Shown here: positions 1,268 to 34,885 of the stretch, piece by piece
Layout of the letters: each line of letters starts with the position of its first letter
How positions within the stretch are numbered: position 1 is the first letter of the stretch
Assembly: GCA_017883205.1 (NCBI GenBank)
Contig: JADGNZ010000053.1
Coordinates: 1-42,987, forward strand
Source of the DNA: Thermoanaerobaculia bacterium
Lineage (GTDB): Bacteria; Acidobacteriota; Thermoanaerobaculia; Gp7-AA8
Length of the DNA: 42,987 nucleotides
Direction: 5' to 3'
Notes under the pieces: generated by a model
What the model was told of the DNA's origin: nothing
Database searches by the model: none
What the model saw: the letters and a program-made list of their open reading frames with translations, nothing else
Made by a program: the position numbers and the translations under genes

Positions 1268-1370
1268 GCCTGCCCTACTCTGCCTCGGCTGGATGGAACC
1301 GGCGCGCGCGGTACTCCGAGGGCTATACTCTTTCCCTGAGGAGAAGGGCGTAGCACACGTCTGTCCACCA

Positions 1371-2111: not shown

Positions 2112-2175
2112 GAGGCACGCAGACTGACTAATGCTACGGAACCGGCGCACGAATCATCAGTCATCGTTAGGCCAG

Positions 2176-2303
2176 CACTCGGGCGAGGACGCCCGACTGC
2201 CCGCGGCCGAGACGCCCGCACTCCTTTTGCTGACCGGAGCGACGAACCCCGCGCAAGGAGTGTGGGCGTCTCGCCCGCGGCCGACGGGGCGTCTCGCCTC
2301 GTT
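2176..2303. repeat. GC-rich palindromic element, copy 1
   Basis: An imperfect inverted repeat of about 128 bases. Its left arm reads GGGCGAGGACGCCCG, then a CCGCGGCCGAGACGCCCGCA-type core and CTCCTT. The right arm begins AAGGAGTG and reverses the same core. Related copies lie at 28156-28257, 34752-34860 and, partly, 41601-41660. It behaves like a REP or MITE-type non-coding repeat. It fills most of the gap between two lipoprotein genes. Confidence 0.75.
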
Positions 2304-2358
2304 GGTAAGATTTCGGCTGGCCGTTGCAAATAGCTGAACCGGTCAGGCCTGCAATCGA

Positions 2359-2904
2359 ATGATCCGACAATGCCTCGCGCTTGTACTCCTCGCCGCATGC
2401 GCGGCACCGCAGACGCCGTCGCATCCGCCGCGTCAGCTCGCACGGAAGCCTTCTTCACCACTCCCCGACAGAGCGCCGCCTCCTCCACCTCCTCCGGACT
2501 CTTCCTACGCGGCCGTTCCGGAAGCCATTGCCACGATCTTGAATGATCCAGCGGCCACGATCGAGATCCTGGTACTCACGAGTGATCGCCGGCCCGGTGA
2601 GACCTTCCGAGGTTTTTCGATCGTGCGCAGGGAAAGCCTTCGCGGTCTCCAACGCGATCGCGTCGCGGTCGTACTCACGAGCGCCGTGACGTACGGTCAC
2701 GTCTCCAATCTCTGTTCATCGGCCGGCATCGGCTTTCACCTATCGAGCCCTCGGGCCGGCACCGTCAACGTCTGGATCGATCCATCGGAGGGACGCGTAG
2801 AGATCCTCGGCAGTTCCCCGCAATCGTTCGCGCTGAGCATGTCCGGCGTCCGCCTCTTCTCAGACCTCAGTCATCAGTTCCAAGGCGAAGGGGGTTGCGG
2901 CTAG
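2359..2904 (+). CDS. Proline-rich lipoprotein, unknown function
   Basis: A 181-residue protein with a short lipoprotein signal peptide (hydrophobic stretch ending L-L-A-A-C, lipidated cysteine near residue 14). A proline-rich linker with a run of seven prolines follows at about residues 18-47, then a globular domain. The linker would hold the globular part away from the membrane. No enzymatic motif is visible and the family is not recognised. No clear ribosome binding site precedes ATG 2359. Confidence 0.65.
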   Translation: MIRQCLALVLLAACAAPQTPSHPPRQLARKPSSPLPDRAPPPPPPPDSSYAAVPEAIATILNDPAATIEILVLTSDRRPGETFRGFSIVRRESLRGLQRDRVAVVLTSAVTYGHVSNLCSSAGIGFHLSSPRAGTVNVWIDPSEGRVEILGSSPQSFALSMSGVRLFSDLSHQFQGEGGCG

Positions 2905-3032
2905 CCCAGCCGGCTCACGGACGGCGCGACGCCAACAACGACGAACATAGAATGCGCGCCACGACGCTCGGCCGCGATCCAACGTACTACAACGCGCCGC
3001 CGCAGATATGACCTGGCGGACTCGGGACAAAC

Positions 3033-3770
3033 ATGCTCATCGAAATCGGACACATTGAGGCCATCTTCCGCTATCCCGTGAAGTCCATGGGCGGAGAACG
3101 ACTAGACGCTGCGAATCTCGGCTGGCACGGACTCGATGGTGACAGGCGCCTGGCATTCCGGAAGATGGATGACCGCAGCGGATTCCCATGGCTGACTGCT
3201 GGCAAGCTTCCCGATCTGCTCCTGTTTGCTCCGCACCGCCGTGAAGATGCTGCGCAAGGAGACCTTCCGACGCATGTTCGCACGCCGGACGGCGAAGAGA
3301 TGCCTCTCTTCGGAGAGGAGTTGGCCGCGGAGGTCGGACGCCGGCACGGAGCTCCCGTGCAGATGATGCAGATGAAACATGGCATCTTCGATGACGCGAG
3401 TATCTCCGTGATTGCCTCCGATACGGTGAACGAGATCAGCCGGCTCGCAGGGCGGAGCCCGGACATACGGCGATTCCGTCCGAATATCGTGGCTCGTTTG
3501 CTGCGATCGGGTCCTTTTCAGGAGGATGCGTGGGTAGGCGGCGTGCTCTCGTTCGGCGAGGGGGACGACGCCCCCGCCGTCACCGTCACGATGCGCGACC
3601 TTCGCTGCTCGATGGTGAACCTAGATCCCGACTCCGCGGCCTCTGCACCGGAAATGATGAAGGCAGTCGTCCGCGCGAACCAGAACACCGCCGGAATCTA
3701 CGGCACGGTCACCCGCATCGGCCGGCTTGCGGTCGGACAGCCCATACTCTTCCGCGCGGCTGAGCCTTGA
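3033..3770 (+). CDS. MOSC domain protein (YcbX/mARC-like)
   Basis: A 245-residue protein with the MOSC N-terminal beta-barrel (I-x-x-I-F-R-Y-P-V-K-S-M-G at residues 8-20) followed by a MOSC domain. In the mARC/YcbX group a conserved cysteine of the MOSC domain binds the molybdenum cofactor. Here Cys192, in L-R-C-S-M-V-N-L-D-P-D-S, fits that position. Members reduce N-hydroxylated compounds or carry sulfur-bonded cofactor, but the substrate cannot be told from sequence. No C-terminal ferredoxin domain is present, so an external electron donor would be needed. Confidence 0.85.
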   Translation: MLIEIGHIEAIFRYPVKSMGGERLDAANLGWHGLDGDRRLAFRKMDDRSGFPWLTAGKLPDLLLFAPHRREDAAQGDLPTHVRTPDGEEMPLFGEELAAEVGRRHGAPVQMMQMKHGIFDDASISVIASDTVNEISRLAGRSPDIRRFRPNIVARLLRSGPFQEDAWVGGVLSFGEGDDAPAVTVTMRDLRCSMVNLDPDSAASAPEMMKAVVRANQNTAGIYGTVTRIGRLAVGQPILFRAAEP

Positions 3771-3820
3771 ACCGTCAGGCCGGCATCATTGAGGTCGGAT
3801 ATGTCATCAGGAGGTTGGCA

Positions 3821-4177
3821 ATGAAGAAGCTGGTACTCGTGCTCGGGTTGTTGGTGCTTTCGTCCCAGGCCGTATTCGCGCAGGATCCACTCGTCGTCAA
3901 CGCAAAGACCTTGCGTCTCAAATTCGAGAACGCGCGGGTGCGCGTGCTGGAGGCGACGCTGAAACCGGGAGCGAAGGAGAACCTTCACTCCCACCCGAGC
4001 TATCTCTTCTACGTCATCGACGGCGGCAAGGTCCGCAATCACGCTGTAGACGGGAAGGTCAGCGAATCGGAATTCAAAGCCGGCGACGTGATCTACCGCG
4101 ACCCGCTCACACACTGGTCGGAGAACATCGGTACCACCACAATCCACCTCATCCTGGTCGAACTGAAGGAGAAATGA
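3821..4177 (+). CDS. Secreted cupin-domain protein
   Basis: A 118-residue protein starting at ATG 3821, fixed by an AGGAGG ribosome binding site at 3809-3814. A Sec signal peptide (M-K-K, hydrophobic core, cleavage after A-F-A-Q) precedes a single small cupin domain. The histidines of L-H-S-H-P and the later G-D-V-I-Y and T-H-W-S motifs fit metal-binding positions of a cupin barrel. It is probably periplasmic and may bind a small ligand; the reaction is unknown. The MOSC gene lies 50 bases upstream on the same strand. Confidence 0.75.
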   Translation: MKKLVLVLGLLVLSSQAVFAQDPLVVNAKTLRLKFENARVRVLEATLKPGAKENLHSHPSYLFYVIDGGKVRNHAVDGKVSESEFKAGDVIYRDPLTHWSENIGTTTIHLILVELKEK

Positions 4178-4202
4178 CGTTCAAACGGCCGGACAAGACT
4201 GA

Positions 4203-4264
4203 ACCACAGAGACACTGAGGACACAGAGTTGAACGCTTACTCTGCGACCTCTGGGTCTCCGTGG
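4203..4264. repeat. CCACAGAGACAC inverted repeat, copy 1
   Basis: ACCACAGAGACACTGAGG on the left is mirrored by CCTCTGGGTCTCCGTGG on the right, an imperfect inverted repeat of about 62 bases just upstream of the gene at 4296. Two further copies occur at 5185-5238 and 39023-39091. This is a dispersed intergenic palindrome of unknown function. Confidence 0.75.
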
Positions 4265-4295
4265 CGACAAGGGCTCAAATTGCTCTGGGGGAACT

Positions 4296-5114
4296 ATGGT
4301 TCGCAAAATCTGGTGTCTGGCCGCCGGCGTCACCGTCGTTCTCCTCGGCGTGACGACCTCCTCAGCGCGGTCGCGAGCCGTTCAGCCTCCGGCTTTCGAA
4401 CGCGTACTCATGCCCTTCGTCGGAGAAGGATCGGTCGCGAATCAATACTGGCTGAGTCAGTTCTGGGCGAAGAACGAAAGCGACACCCCGATCCCAATCT
4501 TCTTCCCGTACCCATGTCAGCTCGGTGAGGGGTGTTCGCCAAATCGCCCTGGCGAGCTCGTGGCCCACGGACTCCTCGTCATCAATCCGACGAACCGAGG
4601 AGCCTCGGGCGTGTTTCTCAACATGGGCAAAGGCCGGCTGCGCGATCTCGCCTACACGCTTCGGGTGGAAGATGTCTCGGGGTTGGATGTCGCCTTCGTT
4701 ACGCTGGGAGGGACGGAACTTCCTCTCGTGCCTGTGGACCGCTTCTCTTCCACGGTAACCTTGCTCAACATACCTGCCAGCAGCGGCACCCTGAAACTCC
4801 TCCGTGTGTACGGCTGGACTGGCGAGCCCGCGAACGTTACGGTCCGTATCTACTCATCCCAAGACAACGCGGAGGTTCTCCTAAGAACGCAAACGCTCGC
4901 TTTGCAGGCCGGTGCCACCGAAAGCGGCTTCGAGGCATACCCAGCGTTCGGCATGGTGGACCTGACCTTCACGATCACGACATTGGCCAGTCAGGCAACC
5001 GAAGGCAGATTGAATATCGAGATCACGGCTGACTCAGGCCATCAGATCTGGTCCTTCCTGGCGCTCCTCCAGCAAGGCGATCGTTCGTTTACGGCAATCA
5101 CGCCTGGGCGGTAA
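4296..5114 (+). CDS. Exported hypothetical protein
   Basis: A 272-residue protein with an N-terminal Sec signal peptide (M-V-R-K-I-W, hydrophobic core, cleavage probably after S-S-A-R-S near residue 25). The mature part has a beta-rich pattern with many short alternating hydrophobic stretches and no catalytic motif that I recognise. It is predicted to be periplasmic or extracellular. It starts about 30 bases after the CCACAGAG-type palindrome, which may therefore lie in its leader or promoter region. Confidence 0.65.
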   Translation: MVRKIWCLAAGVTVVLLGVTTSSARSRAVQPPAFERVLMPFVGEGSVANQYWLSQFWAKNESDTPIPIFFPYPCQLGEGCSPNRPGELVAHGLLVINPTNRGASGVFLNMGKGRLRDLAYTLRVEDVSGLDVAFVTLGGTELPLVPVDRFSSTVTLLNIPASSGTLKLLRVYGWTGEPANVTVRIYSSQDNAEVLLRTQTLALQAGATESGFEAYPAFGMVDLTFTITTLASQATEGRLNIEITADSGHQIWSFLALLQQGDRSFTAITPGR

Positions 5115-5184
5115 GAGGCGAGCCCGCCCAACTGGCCGGTCGTGTCAATTTGGATGGCTTATCGTGGTCGACGAAGCAAAGGCA

Positions 5185-5238
5185 ACCACAGAGACGCAGA
5201 GAACACGGAGGTCTCTGTGATCTCTGTGCCTCTGTGGT
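5185..5238. repeat. CCACAGAGACAC inverted repeat, copy 2
   Basis: ACCACAGAGACGCAGAGAAC on the left mirrors GATCTCTGTGCCTCTGTGGT on the right: a 54-base near-palindrome of the same family as 4203-4264 and 39023-39091. It sits in the gap between the exported protein and the Imm42-like gene. Confidence 0.8.
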
Positions 5239-5324
5239 AATCGGTTCTCCGTCGCGCACATACGTCGTTACCATCCGCGTAATGAACATGCGCGCCCCCT
5301 TGGCCCGTAGCGCTACGCGAAAAC

Positions 5325-5426
5325 GGACTTGGAGCCGCACGTTGCCGCGCCGCCAGTGCATTACAATTTCGCGTGCGGCTCCGAGCCGGTGAGCTTGGAT
5401 CCGATGGGCGGCATGATTGACACAGT
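5325..5426. repeat. Imm42-flanking repeat, left copy
   Basis: About 100 bases alignable with 6021-6120. Shared landmarks are CGGACTTGGAGCC/CGGACCTGGAGCC, then ATTTCGCGTGCGG, GAAGCCGGT/GAGCCGGT, ATCCG and GGGCG. The left copy folds into a stem-loop: GGAGCCGCACG at 5331-5341 pairs with CGTGCGGCTCC at 5372-5382. The TTG start of the immunity gene lies inside its right end. Confidence 0.7.
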
Positions 5427-6010
5427 CCACACACACAGTTCTGGGGGACAAGAGCAGGTTTGCGATCGAAGCCGAGCTCGCGGCGATCGAAGGGAAATGG
5501 TACTTCGGGCACCTCCGCTTCTGGGCAGGCACGCAACCGTTCGGTGACTACGACGACACCACCGACTTGGCGACGAGCGTTCGTTACGCGAAGACGTTCC
5601 TGGCCGCGTCGGCACGAAGGGCCCGTCCGGACCTCGACTCTCTTCCTCCGGACAAGATCTTTTGGCTCCTGTACGGCCGCTTCGTCGACAGCGTTCCCCC
5701 TCCTCTTTCGCCGCGGGAAGATCGCGTCATTGCCGACGTCCTGCAAGGGTGGGGCGACATCGCACCGTTCCTTCTGGATGATGTGGGCGAGTCGTCCCTG
5801 CGTGACAAATGGTCCGTCCTCGTTGTCCGCGGGCAGGATGGCAGCGACCGAATCATCATCTATGACTGGAAGATCGGCACGTCGGCTGAATTCGTGGTCG
5901 GACCGGGCATATGTGATCAGGTGCTGACCAGGTACTGCGAGTGGCTTGAAGCATCTGCGGGCATCCAGTTCATACCCGTTTCGTCGCTGCCTGCCACTCA
6001 TTTGAACTAG
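5417..6010 (+). CDS. Imm42-family immunity protein
   Basis: A 197-residue protein. Its N-terminus, G-D-K-S-R-F-A-I-E-A-E-L then G-K-W-Y-F-G-H-L and G-D-Y-D-D-T-T-D-L, matches the Imm42 immunity family, whose members protect against polymorphic toxins of contact-dependent or secreted systems. It would act in the cytoplasm by binding the toxin. No toxin gene is adjacent, so it looks like an orphan. The TTG start is the best available but lies inside the upstream repeat; the true start could be slightly later. Imperfect repeats flank it on both sides, suggesting arrival as a small module. Confidence 0.7.
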   Translation: MTQSTHTVLGDKSRFAIEAELAAIEGKWYFGHLRFWAGTQPFGDYDDTTDLATSVRYAKTFLAASARRARPDLDSLPPDKIFWLLYGRFVDSVPPPLSPREDRVIADVLQGWGDIAPFLLDDVGESSLRDKWSVLVVRGQDGSDRIIIYDWKIGTSAEFVVGPGICDQVLTRYCEWLEASAGIQFIPVSSLPATHLN

Positions 6011-6020
6011 GACACTGCCC

Positions 6021-6120
6021 CGGACCTGGAGCCGTGCGTTGCAGCATCCCAAGTGCGATACCATTTCGCGTGCGGATCGAAGCCGGTCAGTTTCAATCCG
6101 TTGGGCGCCTGACGACAGTG
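6021..6120. repeat. Imm42-flanking repeat, right copy
   Basis: Direct imperfect copy of 5325-5426, directly after the stop codon of the Imm42-like gene. The central stem is weaker than in the left copy (GGAGCCGTGCG against CGTGCGGATC). It ends with GTTGGGCGCC at 6100-6109, which fits the GTTRRRY core of integron attC sites; the equivalent in the left copy is GATGGGCGGC. A convincing partner core at the other end was not found. Confidence 0.65.
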
Positions 6121-6180
6121 ATGAGACTACGGGTCGTATCAATTCTCTGTGACGCAGGTTAAGTGAGAGACTCAGGCCGC

Positions 6181-6786
6181 ATGACCTCCCCAAACTCGTT
6201 GTCACGCCGGGTATTCGCAGCCGATGCGTACGAAGCGGTAGAGTTGGCTGAGGAAGATCTGCCGGCCCTTCAGGCCTTCTTCGACGGCAATCCCGAGTAC
6301 TTCCTGGCGGTGACTGGAGCGCCGCCTCGACCCGATGAGGCAAAGCAGGAACTTGATTCCCGGCCGCCTCCGGGCCTGCCATACGACAAGGTGTACGTCC
6401 TCGGCTTCCTGGACTCCAGCGGTCAGATGGTGGGAATGGCCTCCGTGCTGACCGACCTCCTGGCACCCCGCGTGTGGCACATCAGCTTATTCATCGTCGC
6501 CACGGCCCTTCATGGCACGGGCATGGCCGGCCTGTTGTACGGGCGGCTCGAGAGCTGGGCGAAAGAGCAGGGCGCCTCCTGGCTCCGGCTTGATGTCGTG
6601 GTGGGCAACCTGAAGGCTGAACGCTTCTGGGAAAAGGCCGGCTACAGTGAGGTTCAGCGCCTGCCCGCGCAGATTGGCAGTATGAGCCACACTGTGCGAG
6701 TCATGGTCAAGCCACTCGGAAACTCGAACATCGACGAGTACTTGCGGGAAGTTCCCCGCGATCGGCCGAAGCAAAGTCTTGCCTGA
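6181..6786 (+). CDS. GNAT-family N-acetyltransferase
   Basis: A 201-residue protein counted from ATG 6181; an in-frame GTG at 6163 would add six residues. It carries the GNAT fold: a beta strand followed by the acetyl-CoA pyrophosphate-binding turn L-H-G-T-G-M-A-G-L-L-Y and, later, a motif R-L-D-V-V-V-G-N-L-K-A-E-R-F-W-E-K-A-G-Y typical of the C-terminal half. It should transfer an acetyl group to an amine; the substrate (small molecule, antibiotic or protein) is unknown. A small membrane protein starts 3 bases after its stop. Confidence 0.8.
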   Translation: MTSPNSLSRRVFAADAYEAVELAEEDLPALQAFFDGNPEYFLAVTGAPPRPDEAKQELDSRPPPGLPYDKVYVLGFLDSSGQMVGMASVLTDLLAPRVWHISLFIVATALHGTGMAGLLYGRLESWAKEQGASWLRLDVVVGNLKAERFWEKAGYSEVQRLPAQIGSMSHTVRVMVKPLGNSNIDEYLREVPRDRPKQSLA

Positions 6787-6789
6787 GAG

Positions 6790-7089
6790 ATGACCAAATC
6801 ATCGTTGCGAACTGCGTCAATATCCTGCCTGGCGATCTGGGCGGCCGTCTGGGTTTTGTTTCTCTTGATGCGCTTCTCGCCTCTCGATTACAGGGGTCTT
6901 CCTGGTATCGGCATGATCCTGCTTGGTTCGCTCGGAGTTGCCCTACTGGCTCCGATCGTGGCCGGGGCGCTCGCGGGCGCTGCGTTAGTTCGACAGCCTC
7001 GGGTGCCACTGAACTGGATCACACTTGGATGCGCGATCGCTGCTTTCTTTGGCCAGGGCCTTCTGCTCCTCATCACAAGGTGGCTGTGA
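6790..7089 (+). CDS. Small three-helix membrane protein
   Basis: A 99-residue protein with three hydrophobic segments (about residues 8-28, 38-66 and 75-96). It starts 3 bases after the acetyltransferase stop, with a weak GAGAGATG start context, so it is probably translated from the same mRNA. Family and function are not recognised. Its codon use matches the neighbours. Confidence 0.5.
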   Translation: MTKSSLRTASISCLAIWAAVWVLFLLMRFSPLDYRGLPGIGMILLGSLGVALLAPIVAGALAGAALVRQPRVPLNWITLGCAIAAFFGQGLLLLITRWL

Positions 7090-7161
7090 TTCGCAGGCGG
7101 TTCCTCCGACTGATGCTACCCTCGTCGATCGCGAGCATCCTTAGCGCCCGCAAGGAGCCTG

Positions 7162-8726
<1,565 letters not shown>

Positions 8727-8730
<4 letters not shown>

Positions 8731-9020
8731 TGACTGCTTCCGAGATTGTGACGACACGCCGGAACGAGATTCTCGCCGTAGCGGCAAAGCATGGCGCCAG
8801 AAATGTCCGCCTTTTCGGCTCGGTCGCTCGCGGTGCCGACGACGAACGTAGCGATATCGATCTCGTCGTCGACTTCGATCCGGAACGTAGCCTGCTCGAC
8901 CACGCCGCACTCTCTCTGGAGTTGCAGGAGCTCCTCGGACGCAGGGTGGACGTCGTGAGCGGCCGTGGGCTGAAGCCGCGCATCCGGGAGCGTGTCCTGA
9001 CGGAAGCAGTGCCGCTTTGA
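8727..9020 (+). CDS. mntA: MntA-like nucleotidyltransferase antitoxin
   Basis: A 97-residue minimal nucleotidyltransferase. The GSx10DxD active-site pattern is complete: Gly31-Ser32, Asp43 and Asp45 in G-S-V-A-R-G and S-D-I-D-L. In studied MntA/HepT systems this protein attaches AMP groups to a tyrosine of the HEPN toxin and so silences it. It overlaps hsdM (ATGA) and the hepT gene (TTGA), so it is translated with both. Its position inside an RM operon suggests a guard role. A plain non-antitoxin nucleotidyltransferase is less likely given the adjacent HEPN gene. Confidence 0.9.
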
Positions 9021-9364
9021 GGGATCCGGGCGAGCGGCTTCGCGACATCCTCGACGCGATCTCGCAGATCGAACGCTACGCCGCGCGAGGGCCGGAGGTA
9101 TTCGAACAGGATGAGTTGATCCAAGTCTGGATCTTCCATCACATTCAGATCATCGGTGAGGCGGCATCTCAGCTCGGCCGCGACTTCCACGAGAGTCATC
9201 CGAACATTCCCTGGGCGCAGATCGTGGCCATGCGAAATCTTCTCATCCACGAATATTTCGGAGTCGATCTTCACGAGGTCTGGCAAACCGTCGAGCACGA
9301 CCTGCCGTTGCTCCGATTGGCGATCCAGGAGCTCCTCGACGCGCCGCCGGAGACGCAGCAATGA
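9017..9364 (+). CDS. hepT: HepT-like HEPN ribonuclease toxin (DUF86)
   Basis: A 115-residue HEPN protein of the DUF86/HepT family. The RNase motif RxxxxHxY is intact: Arg73, His78 and Tyr80 in R-N-L-L-I-H-E-Y. The tyrosine of this motif is the residue modified by MntA in studied pairs. It starts at TTG 9017, overlapping the mntA stop (TTGA); no better start exists. It would cleave RNA when released from its antitoxin. The next frame begins within its stop codon (ATGA). Confidence 0.9.
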   Translation: MRDPGERLRDILDAISQIERYAARGPEVFEQDELIQVWIFHHIQIIGEAASQLGRDFHESHPNIPWAQIVAMRNLLIHEYFGVDLHEVWQTVEHDLPLLRLAIQELLDAPPETQQ

Positions 9365-9687
9365 TCTCTTCGGTGCGAGCGTGGCGATCTCTCTCGATCC
9401 AGCTGACCGCCGACGAGTTCGCCAACTTGAAGTTCCAGTTCGGAACATCAAGTTGCGGGGCACTCGAGAGCGGCATCGTGCAAGAGACGCTTGCACTAAT
9501 CACCTGGCCCGACATCATGTCGCTGAGGCCGGAGGAGATCGGAGACTTGAAGACACAACCCGTTCCTGAGGAGATCTCCGATTTGAGGTCACAAACTGTG
9601 ACCTCAAATTCAGGAACGAATTGCCGCTCATCCCCGACGTTCGCTGCCGTCGCTGCGAACCTGATGGAGCTTCGGTATGGTTGGTGA
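9361..9687 (+). pseudogene. Degenerate ORF6N-domain remnant
   Basis: An open frame of 108 codons overlapping the hepT stop. It contains pieces of the ORF6N DNA-binding domain core (family pattern F-Q-L-T-x-E-E-F-x-N-L-x-S-Q-x-x-T-S-S): Q-L-T-A-D-E-F-A-N-L-K-F-Q-F-G-T-S-S, then L-R-P-E-E-I-G-D-L-K-T-Q, then P-E-E-I-S-D-L-R-S-Q-T-V-T-S-N-S. Complete ORF6N genes often sit between hsdM and hsdS. Here the N-terminal part and the conserved downstream G-G-R-R-x-x-P-x-A-F-T-E-x-G region are missing, so I read it as a decayed, internally repeated gene. It could still be translated. Confidence 0.55.
9561..9618. repeat. Long palindrome inside ORF6N remnant
   Basis: ATTTGAGGTCACA at 9581-9593 and TGTGACCTCAAAT at 9597-9609 are perfectly complementary around an AAC loop. 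Outside this, CGTTCCTGA at 9561-9569 pairs with TCAGGAACG at 9610-9618, leaving an 11-base self-complementary bulge (GGAGATCTCCG). The whole forms a strong cruciform or RNA hairpin shortly before hsdS. Confidence 0.85.
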
Positions 9688-10966
9688 ATGGCATGAGTAC
9701 TCGTTAGGCGAGTTGACCGACAATTTCGACGGCATCCGCGTGCCAGTGAAAGAAGCGGACCGACGCGCCGGGCCATATCCGTACTATGGTGCTTCCGGCA
9801 TCGTGGACCACGTCGACGACTATCTCTTCGAAGGCGAATACCTGCTCGTCGCTGAGGATGGGGAGAACCTGCGAACACGAAAGACACCGGTCGCGTTTAT
9901 CGCGCGTGGAAAGTTTTGGGTGAACAACCACGCCCATATCGTACGCGGCAACAGCGAAGCGGATACGCGCTTCCTGATGTATGCGCTCTCGTCGACCGAC
10001 ATCAGCGGATATCTGACCGGCTCGACGATGCCGAAGCTAACTCAAGGGAACTTGAACCAGATTCCGCTGCTAACACCACCGATCACCGAGCAACGTGCCA
10101 TCGCCCACATCCTCGGCGCTCTTGACGACAAGATCGAGCTGAATCGGCGGATGAACGAGACGCTGGAGGCGATGGCGCGGGCACTCTTCAAGTCGTGGTT
10201 CGTCGACTTTGACCCCGTTCGTGCCAAGGCCGAAGGCCGCGACACCGGCCTGCCCAAACCCCTCGCCGGCCTCTTCCCGCACTCATTTGAAGAATCCGCA
10301 CTGGGAGAGATCCCGAAAGGCTGGAGGGAAAGTGTTCTTGGTGATGAAGTAACACGCTGCGGCGGCCGAATTCAAACCGGCCCCTTTGGAAGTCAGCTCC
10401 ATGCATCGGACTACGTCATCGATGGAGTGCCCGTAGTGATGCCGAAAAACCTATCGCAGCGGAGGATCTCCACGCTGAGCATCGCAAGAGTGAAACCGAG
10501 TGACGTTGAACGTCTCTCCCGCCACAGGTTGGAGGAAGGCGATATTGTCTATAGCCGTCGCGGAGATGTTGAGCAACACGGTCGGGTGCGCAGCCGCGAA
10601 ACAGGATGGCTCTGCGGAACGGGATGTCTTCTCGTCCGTCTCGGCTCCGAGTGGCCCTCACCACTTTTCGCGTCCTTTGCGCTGGATCTCCCTGACACTC
10701 GTGGATGGATCGTCCGTCATGCGATCGGCGCAACCATGCCTAATCTCAACACTGGCATCCTCGCTCGCGTACCGATGGTCGTTCCACCGGACGATTTGCT
10801 GCGTGCGTTCAACCACTCCGCTCAGCCTCTCGCGGACGGTGTGATAGCTGGAGATGCCCAGACAGAGACGCTCTTGGGACTCCGCGACACCCTCCTCCCC
10901 AAACTCATCTCCGGCCAGCTGCGCGTCAAGGACGCCGAGCGCGTCATCGCAGGGGTCGTCTCATGA
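9677..10966 (+). CDS. hsdS: Type I restriction-modification specificity subunit
   Basis: A 429-residue HsdS with the usual two target recognition domains (about residues 1-140 and 215-385), each followed by a conserved helical spacer. The first spacer includes L-D-D-K-I-E-L-N-R-R-M-N-E-T-L near 148-162 and F-K-S-W-F-V-D-F-D-P-V near 172-182; the second ends L-R-D-T-L-L-P-K-L-I-S-G-Q-L near 402-415. It selects the bipartite DNA site for HsdM and HsdR. It starts at ATG 9677 inside the end of the ORF6N remnant, and its stop overlaps the ATPase start (ATGA). Full length and intact. Confidence 0.95.
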   Translation: MVGEWHEYSLGELTDNFDGIRVPVKEADRRAGPYPYYGASGIVDHVDDYLFEGEYLLVAEDGENLRTRKTPVAFIARGKFWVNNHAHIVRGNSEADTRFLMYALSSTDISGYLTGSTMPKLTQGNLNQIPLLTPPITEQRAIAHILGALDDKIELNRRMNETLEAMARALFKSWFVDFDPVRAKAEGRDTGLPKPLAGLFPHSFEESALGEIPKGWRESVLGDEVTRCGGRIQTGPFGSQLHASDYVIDGVPVVMPKNLSQRRISTLSIARVKPSDVERLSRHRLEEGDIVYSRRGDVEQHGRVRSRETGWLCGTGCLLVRLGSEWPSPLFASFALDLPDTRGWIVRHAIGATMPNLNTGILARVPMVVPPDDLLRAFNHSAQPLADGVIAGDAQTETLLGLRDTLLPKLISGQLRVKDAERVIAGVVS

Positions 10967-13272
10967 TCAACAGACTTAAGCTGCTGAGGAACATCGGGCA
11001 GTTCGATTCGGTAGACAGCGCAGCGAACATCCCCCTCGCACGGCTTACCGTCGTCTACTCGGAGAACGGAAGGGGCAAGACGACACTCGCGGCGGTGCTG
11101 CGTTCGCTTGCCACTGGCAATCCCGTGCCAATCGCTGAGCGAAAACGCCTGGCTTCCCAGCATCCGCCCCACGTCGTCCTTGAATGCAGCGGCGGTCCGC
11201 CACCGGCGATCTTCGAGAACAACGCGTGGAACCGGACCCTGCCAGACCTCGCGGTGTTCGATGATGTCTTCATCGACGAGAACGTTCACTCCGGTCTGGT
11301 GGTGCAGGCGCACCACCGGCAGAACCTGCACGAGCTGATTCTCGGCGCGCAAGCCGTGGCCCTAAGCAGGCGGCTCCAGGCGCTGGTCGCACAAATCGAG
11401 ACCCACAATACGACATTGAGGGCTAAGGAGCGTGCCATCCCGACCGCAGACAGAGGTGCGTTCTCCGTAGATGACTTCTGTTCGTTGCCTGCGCGGCCCG
11501 ACATTGAGAAGGCCATTCAGGAGGCGGAGCGCAATCTGGCCGCAGCCCACGATCAAGATGCCATTCGCACGACGCTCCCCTTTGAGTCACTCAGTCTGCC
11601 CTCGTTCAATCTCGCCGCGATCGCGCAAGTTCTCGAGCAAGACCTACCAGCCTTAGATGCCGCAACGCTTGCCCGCGTCCAGACTCACCTGGCCGGGCTC
11701 GGCCAGGGCGGCGAGCCGTGGGTTGCCGATGGTGTGCACCGCATCCAGTCGGGGCACGGTAGCGCGGCAACGGGAGCGTGCCCATTCTGCGCACAGGATC
11801 TGCAAGGTTCGCCCGTCATCCAACACTACAGGGCGTATTTCAGCGACTTATACGCGGTTTTGAAGCGGACGGTATCGGACGCACTCGGAGCGGTCATCCG
11901 AGCGCATGGCGGGGACGTGCCGGCGGGATTTGAGCGGGCGGTGAGAGTTGGCGTCGAGCGACGCCAGTTTTGGTCACGATTCTGCGAAGTGGCGGAATTC
12001 ACACTCGATACGGCCGCGATTGTGCGCGACTGGAGAGCTGCGCGGGAAGCAGTCCAAGCGCAACTAGCCGGAAAGCAAGTCGCGCCGCTGGAGCGCCTAG
12101 ACCTTTCTGATGAGACTCGCGTAGCAGTGGCGACCTACGAAGCTCACAGTCACACGATTGCCACCATCAACCTGCGATTTCAGGAAGCAAACGAGGCGAT
12201 CGGCGTCGCGAAGGAGCGGGCGGCAACGGCTAACTCAACGGTCCTCGGGACCGATCTTGTCCGACTCAAGGCAGTTAAGGCTCGGTACACACCGGCGACC
12301 GCGGCTTTGTGCGACGAGTACCTGCTGGAACGCACGGCTAAGGAGGCGACCGAACAGCTACGCGATCAAGCCAAGGGTGAACTGGATCTGCAGAAGACAA
12401 CCGTTTTCCAAGCGTACCAAACCGCCATCAATGTCTACCTGCCGAAGTTCAACGCGGACTTTCGACTCGACAGCGTGGTGTCTACGAACACGCGGGGCGG
12501 CCCAACCTGCACGTACAACGTCGTCATCAACAACACGCCGGTACCCATCGGCGGAGCTGACCTCGCGCTGGGCGAAGCGTCCTTTCGCAATACCCTCAGC
12601 GCGGGTGATCGCAATACGCTTGCCTTGGCCTTTTTCTTCGCCTCGCTCGATCAGGACACGAAGCTGGCTAACAAAGTCGTCGTCATTGACGACCCAATCT
12701 CGAGCCTGGACGATCATCGGGCCTTGACTACTGTTCAGGAGATTCGCCGCCTTGCCGAACACGCCGCCCAGGTGCACGCAGCCCAGGTGATTGTCCTCTC
12801 TCACAACAAGACTTTTCTCTGCCGACTCTGGGAGGGAGCGGATTCTACCGCGCGCGCTGCTCTCGAAGTGGTCCGTGACGGTGCCGGCTCTACGCTGCGG
12901 GCGTGGGATGTAGCTCAGGACTCGATCACGGAGCATGATCGCCGCCATGCCATGCTGCGCGGGTACGTCGCGAGCAGCTCAGGAAACAAACAAGAGGTTG
13001 CCCGATCGATCCGGCCGCTTCTCGAAGCGTTCCTTCGCGTGGCACGTCCAGAACATTTCAAGCCTGGGGCGGCGTTGCTCGGACCGTTCATCGGCGTCTG
13101 CGAACAACGAGTAGGGACCGCAGGGGAAATCCTGGACTCAGTATCACTCCAGGAACTGCGCGACCTCAACGAGTACGCGAGCAGGTATCACCATCCGGGA
13201 TGGGAGACAGAACCAATCAACGATGGCCAGCTTTGCGGTTTTGTCGAAAGAGCGCTGAGGTTTGCTCGGTGA
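10963..13272 (+). CDS. AAA_13 ATPase, PrrC/RloC-like
   Basis: A 769-residue protein with a split ABC/SMC-like ATPase: Walker A S-E-N-G-R-G-K-T-T at residues 33-41 and Walker B/D-loop V-V-I-D-D-P-I-S-S-L-D near 571-582. A long helical middle holds a C-P-F-C pair (Cys273, Cys276), resembling the zinc hook of RloC. This is the AAA_13 pattern of anticodon nucleases PrrC and RloC, which sit in type I RM loci and cut tRNA when the RM complex is disabled. Near the C-terminus R-P-L-L-E (Arg684, Glu688) and His743/744 could be an R-x3-E...H nuclease triad, but spacing differs from PrrC. It overlaps hsdS by ATGA. Confidence 0.75.
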   Translation: MINRLKLLRNIGQFDSVDSAANIPLARLTVVYSENGRGKTTLAAVLRSLATGNPVPIAERKRLASQHPPHVVLECSGGPPPAIFENNAWNRTLPDLAVFDDVFIDENVHSGLVVQAHHRQNLHELILGAQAVALSRRLQALVAQIETHNTTLRAKERAIPTADRGAFSVDDFCSLPARPDIEKAIQEAERNLAAAHDQDAIRTTLPFESLSLPSFNLAAIAQVLEQDLPALDAATLARVQTHLAGLGQGGEPWVADGVHRIQSGHGSAATGACPFCAQDLQGSPVIQHYRAYFSDLYAVLKRTVSDALGAVIRAHGGDVPAGFERAVRVGVERRQFWSRFCEVAEFTLDTAAIVRDWRAAREAVQAQLAGKQVAPLERLDLSDETRVAVATYEAHSHTIATINLRFQEANEAIGVAKERAATANSTVLGTDLVRLKAVKARYTPATAALCDEYLLERTAKEATEQLRDQAKGELDLQKTTVFQAYQTAINVYLPKFNADFRLDSVVSTNTRGGPTCTYNVVINNTPVPIGGADLALGEASFRNTLSAGDRNTLALAFFFASLDQDTKLANKVVVIDDPISSLDDHRALTTVQEIRRLAEHAAQVHAAQVIVLSHNKTFLCRLWEGADSTARAALEVVRDGAGSTLRAWDVAQDSITEHDRRHAMLRGYVASSSGNKQEVARSIRPLLEAFLRVARPEHFKPGAALLGPFIGVCEQRVGTAGEILDSVSLQELRDLNEYASRYHHPGWETEPINDGQLCGFVERALRFAR

Positions 13273-13323
13273 TGAGACAACCAGCCTGTTTGTGCGCGGC
13301 GGTGCAGGGCTTCACCACGCAAC

Positions 13324-13351
13324 TTGCCCCTATACGCAAGTTGCGTATAAT
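13324..13351 (+). promoter_or_regulatory. RelE/XRE promoter with palindromic operator
   Basis: TTGCCC at 13324-13329 and TATAAT at 13346-13351, 16 bases apart, form a good sigma-70 type promoter. A perfect palindrome, TATACGCAA-G-TTGCGTATA at 13331-13349, fills the spacer and overlaps the -10 box, as expected of an operator bound by the antitoxin. The toxin ATG at 13358 is 6 bases past the -10 box, so the message would be leaderless. Confidence 0.7.
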
Positions 13352-13357
13352 CCATTC

Positions 13358-13702
13358 ATGAAGGGTGTCTTTGTCGAGCTGCCGGCCTTTGAGCGATATC
13401 GGCCGGCCTATCTTGACGATGACGCATTTCTGGCACTTCAGAATCTGCTGATGGAACGTCCCGACGCGGGTGACCTGATCCCGGACGCAGGAGGTCTTCG
13501 CAAACTACGTTTCGCCGACGAGCGGCGCGGCAAGGGCAAACGCGGCGGTCTACGGATCATCTACTACTGGTGGGTCGCAGGTTTCGAGTTCTGGCTCTTC
13601 ACGCTTTACGACAAGGACGAGATGGCTGATCTGACACCGCAGCAGCGCAAGGCGCTCAAAGCAATGATCAAGACGGAATTGCAAGCAAGGAAACGCACAT
13701 GA
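13358..13702 (+). CDS. RelE/HigB-like toxin
   Basis: A 114-residue basic protein of the RelE/HigB type: an N-terminal strand and helices, then beta strands R-G-K-G-K-R-G-G-L-R-I-I-Y-Y-W and F-W-L-F-T-L-Y-D-K-D-E, the usual core of these ribosome-dependent mRNA interferases. ATG 13358 is chosen because the upstream open frame contains the promoter. Toxin first, antitoxin second is the HigBA order. The stop overlaps the antitoxin start (ATGA). It lies between the guard-like ATPase and hsdR. Confidence 0.85.
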   Translation: MKGVFVELPAFERYRPAYLDDDAFLALQNLLMERPDAGDLIPDAGGLRKLRFADERRGKGKRGGLRIIYYWWVAGFEFWLFTLYDKDEMADLTPQQRKALKAMIKTELQARKRT

Positions 13703-14046
13703 AGACAATCGCCAAAGCAAACCCAAAACGCCAAAGGACGCGCGATCTGTTCGATGAATTGAGCGAAGGCGTAGCCGCCCTTGCAGATTCGAGGCACGGC
13801 AAGCGGACACTGCGCACGCATGCGCTCACGTACAAGGCAGCGCCGAAGGTCACGCCGAAGCAACTGATACGCCTGCGTGAAGGCCTCAAGCTTTCGCGCG
13901 CACTGTTTGCCGCCTATCTTCGGACAAATGCTCGCACGCTCGAGAATTGGGAGCAGGGTCGCGCCAAGCCAAATGCGCAGGCCGCGCTGCTGATCAATCT
14001 CGTCAAGCGGTATCCGGATACGATCGAGCGGCTAGCGGCGATCTGA
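13699..14046 (+). CDS. XRE/HigA-like antitoxin
   Basis: A 115-residue protein with a C-terminal helix-turn-helix (about residues 55-108), containing L-R-E-G-L-K-L-S-R-A-L-F-A-A-Y-L-R-T-N-A-R-T-L-E-N-W-E, the XRE pattern with R-T-L-E-N-W-E in the recognition-helix region. The basic N-terminus probably wraps the toxin. It should neutralise the upstream RelE-like protein and repress the pair through the palindrome at 13331-13349. It starts inside the toxin stop (ATGA). Confidence 0.85.
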   Translation: MKTIAKANPKRQRTRDLFDELSEGVAALADSRHGKRTLRTHALTYKAAPKVTPKQLIRLREGLKLSRALFAAYLRTNARTLENWEQGRAKPNAQAALLINLVKRYPDTIERLAAI

Positions 14047-17498: not shown

Positions 17499-17597
17499 AT
17501 GGATGTGCGGCCCCGGCCGTTCATCAGTTACGCTAAAGAGGATCGCAACACTGCGATGCAACTGTGACGGGATCTTCGCCAAAACGGAGCGCGGCCG
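17499..17597 (+). pseudogene. Truncated TIR-domain gene fragment
   Basis: The start of a TIR gene, M-D-V-R-P-R-P-F-I-S-Y-A-K-E-D-R-N-T-A-M-Q-L, ends at a TGA where the intact copy at 18711 has TGG. DNA similarity to that copy continues past the stop to about 17597, and upstream for about 25 bases into the promoter region. It is a 5' duplicate broken by a nonsense change and truncation. It follows hsdR by 98 bases. Confidence 0.8.
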
Positions 17598-18710: not shown

Positions 18711-19568
18711 ATGCATGTGCGGCCGTTCATCAGTTACGCCAGAGAGGATCGCGACACTGCGATGCAACTGTGGCGGGACTTGCGCCAAAACGGGGCGCGA
18801 CCGTGGATCGACAAGGAAGATATCCTTGGGGGCGCCGAGTGGAAACTCGAGATAGCCCAGGCGATCCTTAAATCGTCGCATTTCATTGCGCTCATTTCGG
18901 ACCGGTCGGTCAACAAGCAGGGATTCGTGCAGAAGGAACTGCGGCAAGCTGTCGATCTGCTCGACACATTTCCGCCTGGCGAGGTCTTTGTGATTCCCGT
19001 GCGGTTAGACGGATCCGAACCTCGTCACAGCCGCCTCGCTGAGCTTCATTGGATTGATCTCTTCCCTGATTATGGCGAGGGCTTTCGCAAACTACTCCGG
19101 AGCCTGCGTTTGGAAACAGCCACTCCTGAGCCGGTTGAATATCAATCACATGAGCCTGCGTCCCGACAAGCACCGTCAATCCGGGCAGGCGCAATCGCGA
19201 GGGACGATGAAGGGTTTCTAACCTCCGCTTCCGTTGCGGAACTGGTGCTAGGCCGTGTTCAAGGGCGCCAACAGCTGCGGACAGCTCCGATACTCCTATT
19301 CGTGAACAGCTACCAGCGCACGTGGCTGGTCGTAACCGAGCGCGTCGTCGCGTGCGTTTTGGATGACATCGAAAAGCCAGGTGCGTACGACCCACTGCGG
19401 TGGCAGTGCCGGCACCGATTCGCTCTCCCTGTCGAAGTAGAGCCATACAAGAAGACCGTGGGATTGATCCACCTCGGTCCCGAACATCGAGAGTGGTTGT
19501 ATTCGATACACCTTCATCCTGATCCCGAGCGTCTTTCGGACGAGATCGAAATGCTGCTCCGCCCGTGA
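18711..19568 (+). CDS. TIR-domain protein
   Basis: A 285-residue protein from ATG 18711 (ATG 18699 would add four residues). Residues ~1-130 are a bacterial TIR domain: V-R-P-F-I-S-Y-A-R-E-D-R-D-T-A, then R-P-W-I-D-K-E-D-I, and the region around Glu76 (G-F-V-Q-K-E-L) that fits the catalytic glutamate of NAD-cleaving TIRs; the usual tryptophan before it is phenylalanine. The C-terminal 140 residues form an unrecognised domain with strands such as L-L-F-V-N-S-Y-Q-R-T-W-L-V-V-T. It probably consumes NAD or makes a nucleotide signal in defence; partners may be the membrane protein upstream. Confidence 0.85.
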   Translation: MHVRPFISYAREDRDTAMQLWRDLRQNGARPWIDKEDILGGAEWKLEIAQAILKSSHFIALISDRSVNKQGFVQKELRQAVDLLDTFPPGEVFVIPVRLDGSEPRHSRLAELHWIDLFPDYGEGFRKLLRSLRLETATPEPVEYQSHEPASRQAPSIRAGAIARDDEGFLTSASVAELVLGRVQGRQQLRTAPILLFVNSYQRTWLVVTERVVACVLDDIEKPGAYDPLRWQCRHRFALPVEVEPYKKTVGLIHLGPEHREWLYSIHLHPDPERLSDEIEMLLRP

Positions 19569-25956: not shown

Positions 25957-26355
25957 GATTTGTTCTCCTTATCCTTGGTAAAACCGGACGTAAGACGCTA
26001 CGCGCGCTTACGGCGGCGGGTGGCACCGCGGAGCAATGGCCGTTGCGCCGCGGGCGTTGGGGCAATGGTGCGCACATGCCCTGAAAAATCGAGTCGATAC
26101 TGTGTATACGAAGAGGGTTTCGCGAAAGTGTCGGTACAATTGTTAAACTATCGCTACAGGCACGAATCTCATTACTTAGGGAATTGTGCGTAAGAACGCA
26201 CCGCGAGGCCTGGCTGGAGGGAAAGTTCGGGCGCTGAAGCTGGACGACGCTCTCTCGCGGAGAGGTCTGCACCCGCCGGAATCCGGGTTGTCCTCTCGAA
26301 AGATGGTCCGCACGTGTTTCGGGATGGGTCTTACGTATTTCAAAAATGGGGCCGG
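25957..26355. other. Upstream region of the protease operon
   Basis: No gene is supported here. The region between the 42-bp array and the protease operon should hold the operon's promoter on the minus strand, but no clear -10/-35 pair is visible. The AT-rich stretch at 26090-26190 is the best place for it. Short open frames on the plus strand lack ribosome binding sites. Confidence 0.4.
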
Positions 26356-26770
26356 ATCGATTTCGGTGGGGTTTCCACTCGTGAAATAGTGTCGAAACCA
26401 ATTTCGGTAGTCGTATTGGCTCCTGAAACTGAGTCGGGACCAATTTCGGTAGTCGTTTTGACTACTGAAATTAGGTCGGGACCAATTTCGGTAGTCGTTT
26501 TGACTACTGAATTTAGGTCGCGACCAATTTCGGTAGTCGTTTTGACTACTGAAATTAGGTCGGGACCAATTTCAGTAGTCGTTTTGACTCCTGAAATTAG
26601 GTCGGGACCAATTTCAGTAGTCGTTTTGACTACTGAAATTAGGTCGGGACCAATTTCGGTAGTCGTTTTGACTACTGAAATTGGGTCGGGACCAATTTCG
26701 GTAGTGGTTTTGACTCGTGAAATGGGGTGGAGACCAACTTCGGCAGTGATTTTCGCCTTATTGAAATAGC
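26356..26770. repeat. Tandem array of ~10 hairpin units, 42 bp each
   Basis: Units start at 26356 and then every 42 bases from 26397 to 26733. The typical unit is ACCAATTTCGGTAGTC-GTTTT-GACTACTGAAATTAGGTCGG. Within it AATTTCRGTAGTC pairs with GACTACTGAAATT, a 13-bp stem with a five-base loop; the unit at 26607 is perfect. End units are more diverged. Because the period is a multiple of three and each unit is near-palindromic, both strands are open and encode similar 14-residue repeats (P-I-S-V-V-V-L-T-T-E-I-R-S-G on plus, L-I-S-V-V-K-T-T-T-E-I-G-P-D on minus). There is no spacer, so it is not a CRISPR array. Confidence 0.9.
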
Positions 26771-26998
26771 GTCCGGACCTTTTTCGGCAGGAGTTGACCT
26801 TTTTTGAGGACGGCTGAAGGTTCGGCCCCTCCACCCGGGGGCGCGGACGCGCAGTCGAAGGGCGCGCGGTTCCTGACGCGCGCGTCGGGCTCGCGCTCGC
26901 AGCGGCGGGACGCCGCCCGGCCAGCCGCCGGGACGGCGGCGTTCCACTCGTGATGGCCATGAGTGTGGCAACCTTGCCGGCCACTTACGGATCGCGTC

Positions 26999-28040: not shown

Positions 28041-28155
28041 TCGATGCCGAATGCCTGCACGTTTCAGGGCGGTCCAGGCTCGGCGTTCGATCTGCGACGA
28101 CGTACTTCACCCAAGCCTTGAACATTGACGAATATCGACCTCCGCCCCGGCTGCA

Positions 28156-28257
28156 CTCGGGCGAGGACGCCCGAGTGCCCGCGGTCGAGACGACCGCACT
28201 CCTTACGACGGAGGAGTGTGGGCGTCTCGCCCGCGGCCATCGGGGCGTCCCGCCTCG
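28156..28257. repeat. GC-rich palindromic element, copy 2
   Basis: Same family as 2176-2303: GGGCGAGGACGCCCGAGTGC, a CCGCGGTCGAGACGACCGCA core and CTCCTTACGACGGAGGAGTG, then GGGCGTCTCGCCCGCGGCC in reverse. A 24-base stretch, 28181-28204, is identical to 41626-41649 inside the permease gene. Confidence 0.8.
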
Positions 28258-28375
28258 GTGGTTGGACCAAGGGCGGCGAGCAGATGTTGCAGTTGGTGCT
28301 GAATCCCGTACCCGCGTGCATGCCGGGGGTAGGGAAAATCGCTGTTTCGGCCTCTCCTATGAAGATCGCTCGAAA

Positions 28376-34689: not shown

Positions 34690-34751
34690 AGATCGAGTAC
34701 CCGGAATCGACCCCGCGCTCGAAGCGGGGCGGTACCGCTGACAAGACATCA

Positions 34752-34860
34752 CCGTCGGGCGAGGACGCCCAACGGGAGCAGGCAAGGACGCCTGCACTAC
34801 GTCGCCGGAACGTAGTGCGGGCATTCCTGCCTGCTCCCGACGGGCGTCCCTGCCCGGCGG
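34752..34860. repeat. GC-rich palindromic element, copy 3
   Basis: Outer ends GTCGGGCGAGGACGCCC and GGGCGTCCCTGCCCGGC mirror each other; inside, GGGAGCAGGCAAGGACGCCT...ACTACGT pairs with ACGTAGT...CCTGCCTGCTCCC around CGCCGGA. The outer part matches the family at 2176 and 28156; the inner part differs. It lies between the converging TPR protein and dipeptidase genes and may terminate both. Confidence 0.8.
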
Positions 34861-34885
34861 TGTCGACGTGCCGGAAGTCGTACGC

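What the first reader, a model, noticed from the sequence alone, without database searches (positions are those of the whole stretch)
5325..6120. Orphan Imm42 gene framed by ~100 bp imperfect repeats
The two flanks align over about 100 bases and the left one folds around an 11-bp stem. The right copy ends with GTTGGGC, which fits the integron attC core. This looks like a small mobile module carrying one immunity gene without its toxin. The attC reading is inference: the second core site is not convincing, and the left copy has GATGGGC.
Basis: partly seen in the sequence, partly recalled or inferred. Interest (0 to 1): 0.6.

Follow-up and report, generated by a model that had tools for sequence, protein, structure and literature searches.

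The report
Worn integron cassette, immunity-like gene
The gene sits between two worn copies of the recombination site (attC) of this bacterium's own integron, a known gene-shuffling system, so it looks like a stranded gene cassette carrying what may be a lone protective gene without its toxin.

Summary
The repeat is real and is an integron attC site. The copies (5305-5409, 6001-6106) are 78% identical over 87 ungapped bases. A covariance model from 29 other sites of this genome, window left out, finds them at E 2.4e-17 and 2.2e-18. The genome has 44 matches at E <= 1e-3, many in one-strand arrays, and one integron integrase above cut-off on another contig (476 bits, cut-off 265), with a site of the family downstream. 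The model also finds sites in 4 of 9 integron-integrase loci of other bacteria. The gene's stop follows the AAC of its site's first core, as in 5 of 28 array rows: cassette anatomy.

Both window sites look decayed. The left cleavage core reads GATGGGC, whereas 40 of 41 other sites keep GTT; neither window hairpin folds better than shuffles. Probably stranded, not mobile now.

The Imm42 label is marginal: 28.2 bits against 27.2, N-terminal half only. No toxin was recognised among the neighbours scanned. No relative of the gene was found in 395 other phylum genomes. Verdict: a two-site CALIN relic of a chromosomal integron, probably Acidobacteriota; a new member of a known kind.

The parts
5305..5409 (+). 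Left attC site, degraded
   Evidence: R2 match 65.2 bits, E 2.4e-17, model built without the window; bottom-strand fold z -0.03 and -0.76
5303..5309 (+). Remains of the left first core: GCCCGTA where the family has RYYYAAC
   Evidence: Sequence; no AAC in this region
5403..5409 (+). Left cleavage core, GATGGGC instead of GTTRRRY
   Evidence: Sequence; GTT is present in the tail of 40 of 41 other own-genome sites
5404..6100 (+). Inserted cassette unit of 697 bases, from after the first base of the left core to the first base of the right core
   Evidence: Copy spacing 697; crossover point between first and second base of the core as stated in PMC12901181 (passage)
5417..6010 (+). Cassette gene, 197 aa, Imm42-like; TTG start, TAG stop directly after the AAC of the right first core
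   Evidence: ORF; PF15593 28.2 bits, cut-off 27.2, residues 9-88; stop geometry
6001..6106 (+). Right attC site, belonging to the cassette gene
   Evidence: R2 match 68.7 bits, E 2.2e-18; bottom-strand fold z -0.21 and -0.14
6001..6007 (+). Right first core, TTTGAAC (AAC kept, the preceding bases depart from RYYY)
   Evidence: Sequence, alignment to R2
6100..6106 (+). Right cleavage core, GTTGGGC, fits GTTRRRY
   Evidence: Sequence

Best explanation
The two repeats are attC sites of the genome's own chromosomal integron family, and the gene between them is a gene cassette. In integrons the integrase takes up a circular unit of one gene plus one attC and inserts it by recombining the folded bottom strand of attC. 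This outpost lies on a contig without an integrase match, so by anatomy it is a minimal CALIN (cluster of attC sites lacking an integron integrase), and probably a relic: the left site has lost its cleavage core and both hairpins are degraded, so excision as a cassette is unlikely now. The gene most likely encodes an Imm42-like immunity protein that would neutralise a toxin delivered by a neighbour, carried without that toxin. Shown here: the attC family, the integrase, the cassette geometry, the sequence decay. Inferred: past mobility, present immobility, and the protective role.
For: Held-out model R2 finds both copies at E about 1e-17 to 1e-18. 44 matches of the family in the genome at E <= 1e-3, 11 of which trained R1; C24 has 14 sites on one strand. 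Hairpin kept by compensation: 142 cells changed on both sides against 54.4 in shuffles, 0 of 500. Integron integrase 476.3 bits, cut-off 265, best solved relative IntI4 2a3v, with a site of the family downstream. R2 finds sites in 4 of 9 integrase loci of other bacteria. Stop geometry AACTAG/AACTGA shared with 5 of 28 array rows. 15 of 18 family genomes, own included, hold sites. Decay. Gene patchy: 0 of 395 other phylum genomes.
Against: The window sites have poor cores and do not fold better than shuffles, so taken alone they would not pass as functional attC. No recombination was tested. R2's training rows were aligned with R1, to which the window gave 2 of 11 rows. Imm42 is met by one bit over the N-terminal half; NCBIfam finds no family, and the Pfam family search of the genome missed this very gene. 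6 of 42 other own-genome sites also have fold z above -1, so z alone does not prove decay.
Confidence: 0.85

Rival explanations
1. The cassette is still mobile: the integrase on C52 acts in trans on these sites and excises the gene.
For: An intact integrase frame exists in the genome. The right cleavage core GTTGGGC is intact, and in the model alignment 21 to 22 of the 25 modelled pairs still form.
Against: Excision needs two working sites; the left core has lost GTT and both bottom strands fold no better than shuffles.
Confidence: 0.1
2. It got here as a single cassette inserted by the integrase into a genomic attG-type site, rather than as a fragment of a larger array.
For: Insertion at attG sites is described (Loot et al. 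2024, seen only as a citation and in passages of PMC12901181). Lone sites lie on other contigs too, such as C54 and C18, and congener G002 has a lone, also decayed site on the other side of the same MOSC-cupin pair.
Against: One insertion should leave one attC; here the left copy is a full-length family member too. The upstream ORF 4296-5114 is weakly related (27%) to a C45 cassette protein, which hints at a longer lost array, though such proteins are widespread.
Confidence: 0.3
3. The cassette protein is not an immunity protein; it is one more cassette protein of unknown function with a partial resemblance to Imm42.
For: The Pfam score is one bit over cut-off and covers residues 9-88 of 197; NCBIfam and PADLOC find nothing; no toxin recognised among the neighbours scanned; the structure prediction was too poor to use.
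Against: Two Rhizobium proteins annotated Imm42 are distant relatives (E 8e-4 and 2e-3), one covering residues 9-169, and that gene starts 2 bases after a large hemagglutinin-repeat gene. Alignment gives 27% identity to it.
Confidence: 0.35
4. The repeats are an ordinary dispersed intergenic repeat (REP or MITE-like) with no link to integrons.
For: Copies are scattered over many contigs, and the genome has other dispersed repeats, one of them next to the left copy.
Against: One-strand arrays with genes between, attC cores, compensatory hairpin, an integrase with a site downstream, and matches beside integrases of other bacteria.
Confidence: 0.02

Closest known systems
Sedentary chromosomal integrons and their gene cassettes
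   Same: IntI of the TIGR02249 subfamily, attC-like sites after single genes on one strand, many cassettes of unknown function. Acidobacteriota are already listed among phyla with integrons (PMC8618304, passage).
   Different: The window part has no integrase on its contig and its sites are degraded. On C52 the integrase and the downstream site are on the same strand, not divergent.
[quoted passage not shown]
   Same: Two attC sites without an integrase on the contig; [quoted passage not shown]
   Different: The same genome still has an integrase and long arrays elsewhere; IntegronFinder itself was not run.
CDI-type toxin-immunity pairs with Imm42
   Same: Distant relative of an Imm42 protein encoded 2 bases after a hemagglutinin-repeat gene in Rhizobium leguminosarum. 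Imm42 is tabulated as alpha+beta, partner Ntox18 (PMC3482391, passage).
   Different: No toxin gene recognised beside it, and the carrier is an integron cassette.
Orphan immunity gene arrays of Vibrio cholerae T6SS clusters
   Same: Immunity genes kept without their toxin.
   Different: The authors compare them to integrons but state that there is no evidence for an integrase in their insertion (PMC5361080, passages). Here the integron link is direct.

Membership tests
Integron attC site | Cores RYYYAAC and GTTRRRY at the ends | tested here: inconclusive
   Array sites meet it. Window right: cleavage core GTTGGGC met, first core TTTGAAC only partly. Window left: GCCCGTA and GATGGGC, not met.
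Integron attC site | Conserved hairpin with compensatory changes | tested here: met
   Family of 29 sites without the window: 91.7% of cells paired, 142 both-sided changes against 54.4 in shuffles. Window copies match the model but do not fold better than shuffles.
Integron attC site | Extrahelical base(s) on one arm | tested here: inconclusive
   The family structure has an unpaired base on one side only between pairs 18-113 and 20-112. Its role was not tested, and it was not checked by itself in the window copies.
Integron attC site | Model made from the family also finds sites beside integrases of unrelated bacteria | tested here: met
   4 of 9 loci at E <= 0.01; 5 of 9 without a match.
Integron attC site | Recombined by an integron integrase as folded bottom strand | not testable with these tools
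   Needs an assay.
Integron gene cassette | One gene between attC sites, same orientation, stop at or near the first core | tested here: met
   Stop directly after AAC as in 5 of 28 array rows; start 7 bases after the left site, array genes -6 to 40 bases in 21 of 27 rows.
CALIN | At least two attC sites, no integron integrase in the cluster | tested here: met
   Two sites in the window; no match of TIGR02249 on C95 among 21 in the genome. IntegronFinder was not run.
Complete integron (elsewhere in the genome) | Intact integron integrase with attC downstream | tested here: met
   C52:17671-18615, 476.3 bits, no stops; site at C52:19921-20026. attI was not tested.
Imm42 (PF15593) | Score above the curated cut-off | tested here: met
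   28.2 bits against 27.2, narrowly.
Imm42 (PF15593) | Match over the whole domain | tested here: not met
   Profile positions 3-85 of 162 only.
Imm42 (PF15593) | Gene next to a polymorphic toxin gene | tested here: not met
   Neighbours scanned by Pfam: ORF 4296-5114 none, GNAT 6163-6786, ORF 6790-7089 none, HsdM. TPS domain not found in the genome, but that search rang in no control genome, so it shows little.

The most novel reading that the evidence does not exclude
Chromosomal integrons of this Acidobacteriota family collect stand-alone immunity genes against toxins delivered by neighbours as cassettes, a shuffled shield library, and this locus is one that dropped out of the library and became fixed in the chromosome.
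Probability: 0.15. Interest if true: 0.6.

Novelty: new member of a known kind. Interest (0 to 1): 0.35.

Why it matters
It turns a tentative reading into a firm one and brings to light a large integron family in a little-studied group (sites in 15 of 18 genomes of the family, own included), with outposts on many contigs. If the cassette gene is an immunity gene, integrons would be one route by which bacteria gain protection from a toxin without carrying the toxin.

Tried and rejected
Rfam over 5200-6250: no match up to E 1. Structure of the cassette protein from its single sequence: mean pLDDT 40.6, so no fold search was made. Close relatives of the cassette protein in genome contigs by peptide patterns: 23 stretches matched a pattern, none encodes a relative. 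R-box pairing count: dropped as uninformative, since 1505 of 5000 random head and tail pairs reach 6 or 7 of 7; only its GTT and AAC counts are used. Sigma-70 promoter scan of 5050-6250: none found, 0.3 expected in shuffles; it says little.

A longer lost array upstream was considered, because ORF 4296-5114 resembles a C45 cassette protein (27%, E 2e-9 in a one-against-one comparison). Left open: relatives of this protein occur in 8 of the 9 genomes searched, own included, and the C45 protein is not among the two own-genome places that search listed. The GNAT gene 6163-6786 as a further cassette: left open; no attC follows it in the window, and in G002 an 87% identical copy lies on another contig, with only an 18.1-bit partial attC match about 570 bases from its start.

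Limits: the PF15593 search over 396 phylum genomes found 2 genomes and missed the window's own gene, so it undercounts distant members. One search scored 150 of 7310 first-look candidates, so the site count is a lower bound.

Rows dropped before counts: one search left out the contig-end site L029:1-101; one search left out that one, the contig-end site L104:3465-3565 and the two G002 sites L100 and L101. One search used 9 of the 80 loci. Searches scanned 20 of the 28 array intervals.

Full report
Observation. The two flanks align over 87 bases without gaps at 78% identity, start-to-start spacing 697. The left copy contains the stated 11-pair stem. The core letters GATGGGC (5403-5409) and GTTGGGC (6100-6106) are as read. 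The gene between is a 197-codon frame, TTG 5417 to TAG 6010.

The repeat is a family. BLAST with the left copy gives 8 places in the own genome, itself included; the right copy gives 26 at E <= 10, most of them weak. On contigs C24 and C45 some sites of 105-106 bases begin with RYYYAAC and end with GTTRRRY. Model R1, from 11 sites including both window copies, gave 50 matches in the genome at E <= 1, 44 of them at E <= 1e-3 (150 of 7310 first-look candidates were scored). C24 (8.9 kb) carries 14 sites, all on one strand; C45 carries 15 at E <= 1e-4 on one strand (a weak opposite-strand match, 18.7 bits, lies on one of them). Between neighbours the longest frame runs in the direction of the sites in 26 of 28 intervals, and 24 of 28 intervals are under 1 kb. 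Further sites lie on C42, C52, C47, C68, C54, C18, C103, C44, C38 and others.

Held-out test. R2 was built from 29 sites without the window; its rows were aligned with R1, so the window had a small indirect part. R2 scores the window copies at 68.7 bits (E 2.2e-18) and 65.2 bits (E 2.4e-17); the next match in the window has 8.7 bits, E 2.1. In the 29 sites 91.7% of cells pair and 142 cells show changes on both sides, against 54.4 in shuffles (0 of 500) and 8 to 29 in the slid controls. Two other measures of that call, pairs with a both-sided change and further pair types, do not stand out from the shuffles (43 and 124 of 500 reach them).

Integrase. TIGR02249 has 21 matches in the genome at E <= 10, one place above its cut-off: C52:17671-18615, 476.3 bits against 265; the open frame is 347 aa. 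NCBIfam agrees, and the best solved relative is IntI4, 2a3v, 318 bits. A site of the family lies downstream at C52:19921-20026. The closest named integrase, 84% identical, is in an Acidobacteria MAG, 'gp7 AA10', so the host is probably Acidobacteriota (inference). R2 also matches in 4 of 9 loci chosen from the 80 returned: Lampropedia L111 (three sites), Stutzerimonas L129, an Actinomycetes MAG L133 and a Thermoanaerobaculales MAG L167; L110, L115, L116, L117 and L141 had none. In the family, 15 of 18 genomes, own included, hold sites at E <= 1e-4.

Cassette anatomy. The gene's stop follows the AAC of the right first core directly (AACTAG). 5 of 28 array rows do the same (four AACTAG, one AACTGA), and in 6 more the stop overlaps the AAC. 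The start lies 7 bases after the left site; in the arrays 21 of 27 rows have it between -6 and 40 bases. This explains the C-terminal '...LN' of the protein as read-through of the core. An ATG at 5413 lies in another frame.

Decay. The left cleavage core has lost GTT; 40 of 41 other own-genome sites have GTT in the tail and 35 of 41 have AAC at the head (a lenient test, anywhere in a short stretch). Bottom-strand folds of the window sites are no better than shuffles (z -0.03 and -0.21), while three array sites gave -3.3, -4.4 and -5.0. In a second run the window gave -0.76 and -0.14; of 42 other own-genome sites 26 lie at -3 or below, and 6 lie above -1. In the model alignment 22 (left) and 21 (right) of 25 pairs still form. 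I read this as old but recognisable sites. Other lone sites, C49 and C44, look similarly worn.

The gene. Pfam Imm42 is met by one bit over residues 9-88; NCBIfam and PADLOC find nothing. Two Rhizobium plasmid proteins annotated Imm42 are distant relatives (E 8e-4 and 2e-3). One of the genes starts 2 bases after a large hemagglutinin-repeat gene, the order expected of a toxin-immunity pair. An alignment with that protein and two phylum members gives 27, 18 and 17% identity. In 396 phylum genomes, own included, the protein was found only in its own, and the Pfam family in two others, while that family search missed the window gene itself. A 27-base DNA match in G005 falls inside the gene and was not followed. 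Of 20 array cassette proteins scanned, none matched an immunity family; matches above cut-off were ankyrin, peptidase S51, CHAT, PNPOx-like, glyoxalase, HXXEE and TIG.

Locus in relatives. In 59 other genomes the DNA of 4296-7162 gave only single attC copies, the neighbouring dispersed repeat, the G005 match and, in G002, the GNAT gene. In congener G002 the MOSC and cupin genes (window 3019-4181) lie on one contig, about 2 kb apart, and a lone, also decayed attC (61.8 bits, no AAC, no GTT) lies upstream of MOSC, not downstream of the cupin. So neither a conserved locus nor a clean empty site was found.

Literature. The attC core, bottom-strand folding and crossover are from passages of PMC12901181; CALIN usage from passages of PMC9024848; integrons in Acidobacteriota are already listed in PMC8618304 (passage). 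Cassette-encoded 'immunity proteins' are mentioned once in a plant microbiome survey (PMC11089894, passage); a metagenome survey of integron genes has no occurrence of 'immunity' in its main text (PMC7370490). Searches for integron with immunity protein, polymorphic toxin, orphan immunity and immunity genes gave 4, 5, 2 and 1 papers; from listings and the passages read, none describes an Imm42 cassette. Two papers hold the word Imm42: one read in passages, the other seen only in the listing. This is a limited search of open papers.

Verdict. A real and well-explained feature: a stranded integron cassette with decayed attC sites. New member of a known kind. The attC part is firm; the immunity role is a moderate inference.

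Noticed in passing
L045:9615-10658 and L046:921-1026 (G000:C52): The integron integrase gene and the attC site downstream of it are on the same strand, whereas the usual arrangement (recalled) is divergent; in Lampropedia L111 the sites are on the strand opposite to the integrase.
   Followed up: partly
window 7162-14046: Defence-like block: type I methyltransferase and specificity genes with a PDC-S09 match (8727-9020) between them, and a large PDC-S06/PrrC-like ATPase (10963-13272); two small genes at 13262-14046 look like a toxin-antitoxin pair (recalled, not tested).
   Followed up: partly
window 5164-5259: Imperfect inverted repeat just left of the left attC; similar sequence has many matches in congeners G001 and G002, so it is a separate dispersed repeat of the genus.
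   Followed up: partly
L209:11449-11551 (G002:C226): A lone attC without AAC or GTT cores upstream of the MOSC gene in the congener, on the other side of the MOSC-cupin pair from the window's sites.
   Followed up: partly
L031 about 2882-4912 (G000:C45): A 2-kb array interval encodes a 443-aa CHAT (caspase-like) protein, possibly a defence protein carried as a cassette.
   Followed up: no
window 26329-26790: Tandem array of a 42-base unit, neighbouring copies 67-88% like the reference.
   Followed up: no
window 2175-2306, 28153-28262, 34750-34862, 41598-41649: A GC-rich dispersed repeat family with partly palindromic copies.
   Followed up: no
window 17514-17597 and 18720-18803: Two 84-base copies 89% identical, 1.2 kb apart, perhaps a duplicated gene start.
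   Followed up: no
window 1308-1334: Short match to the middle of the attC model, 8.7 bits, E 2.1; by itself not above chance.
   Followed up: no
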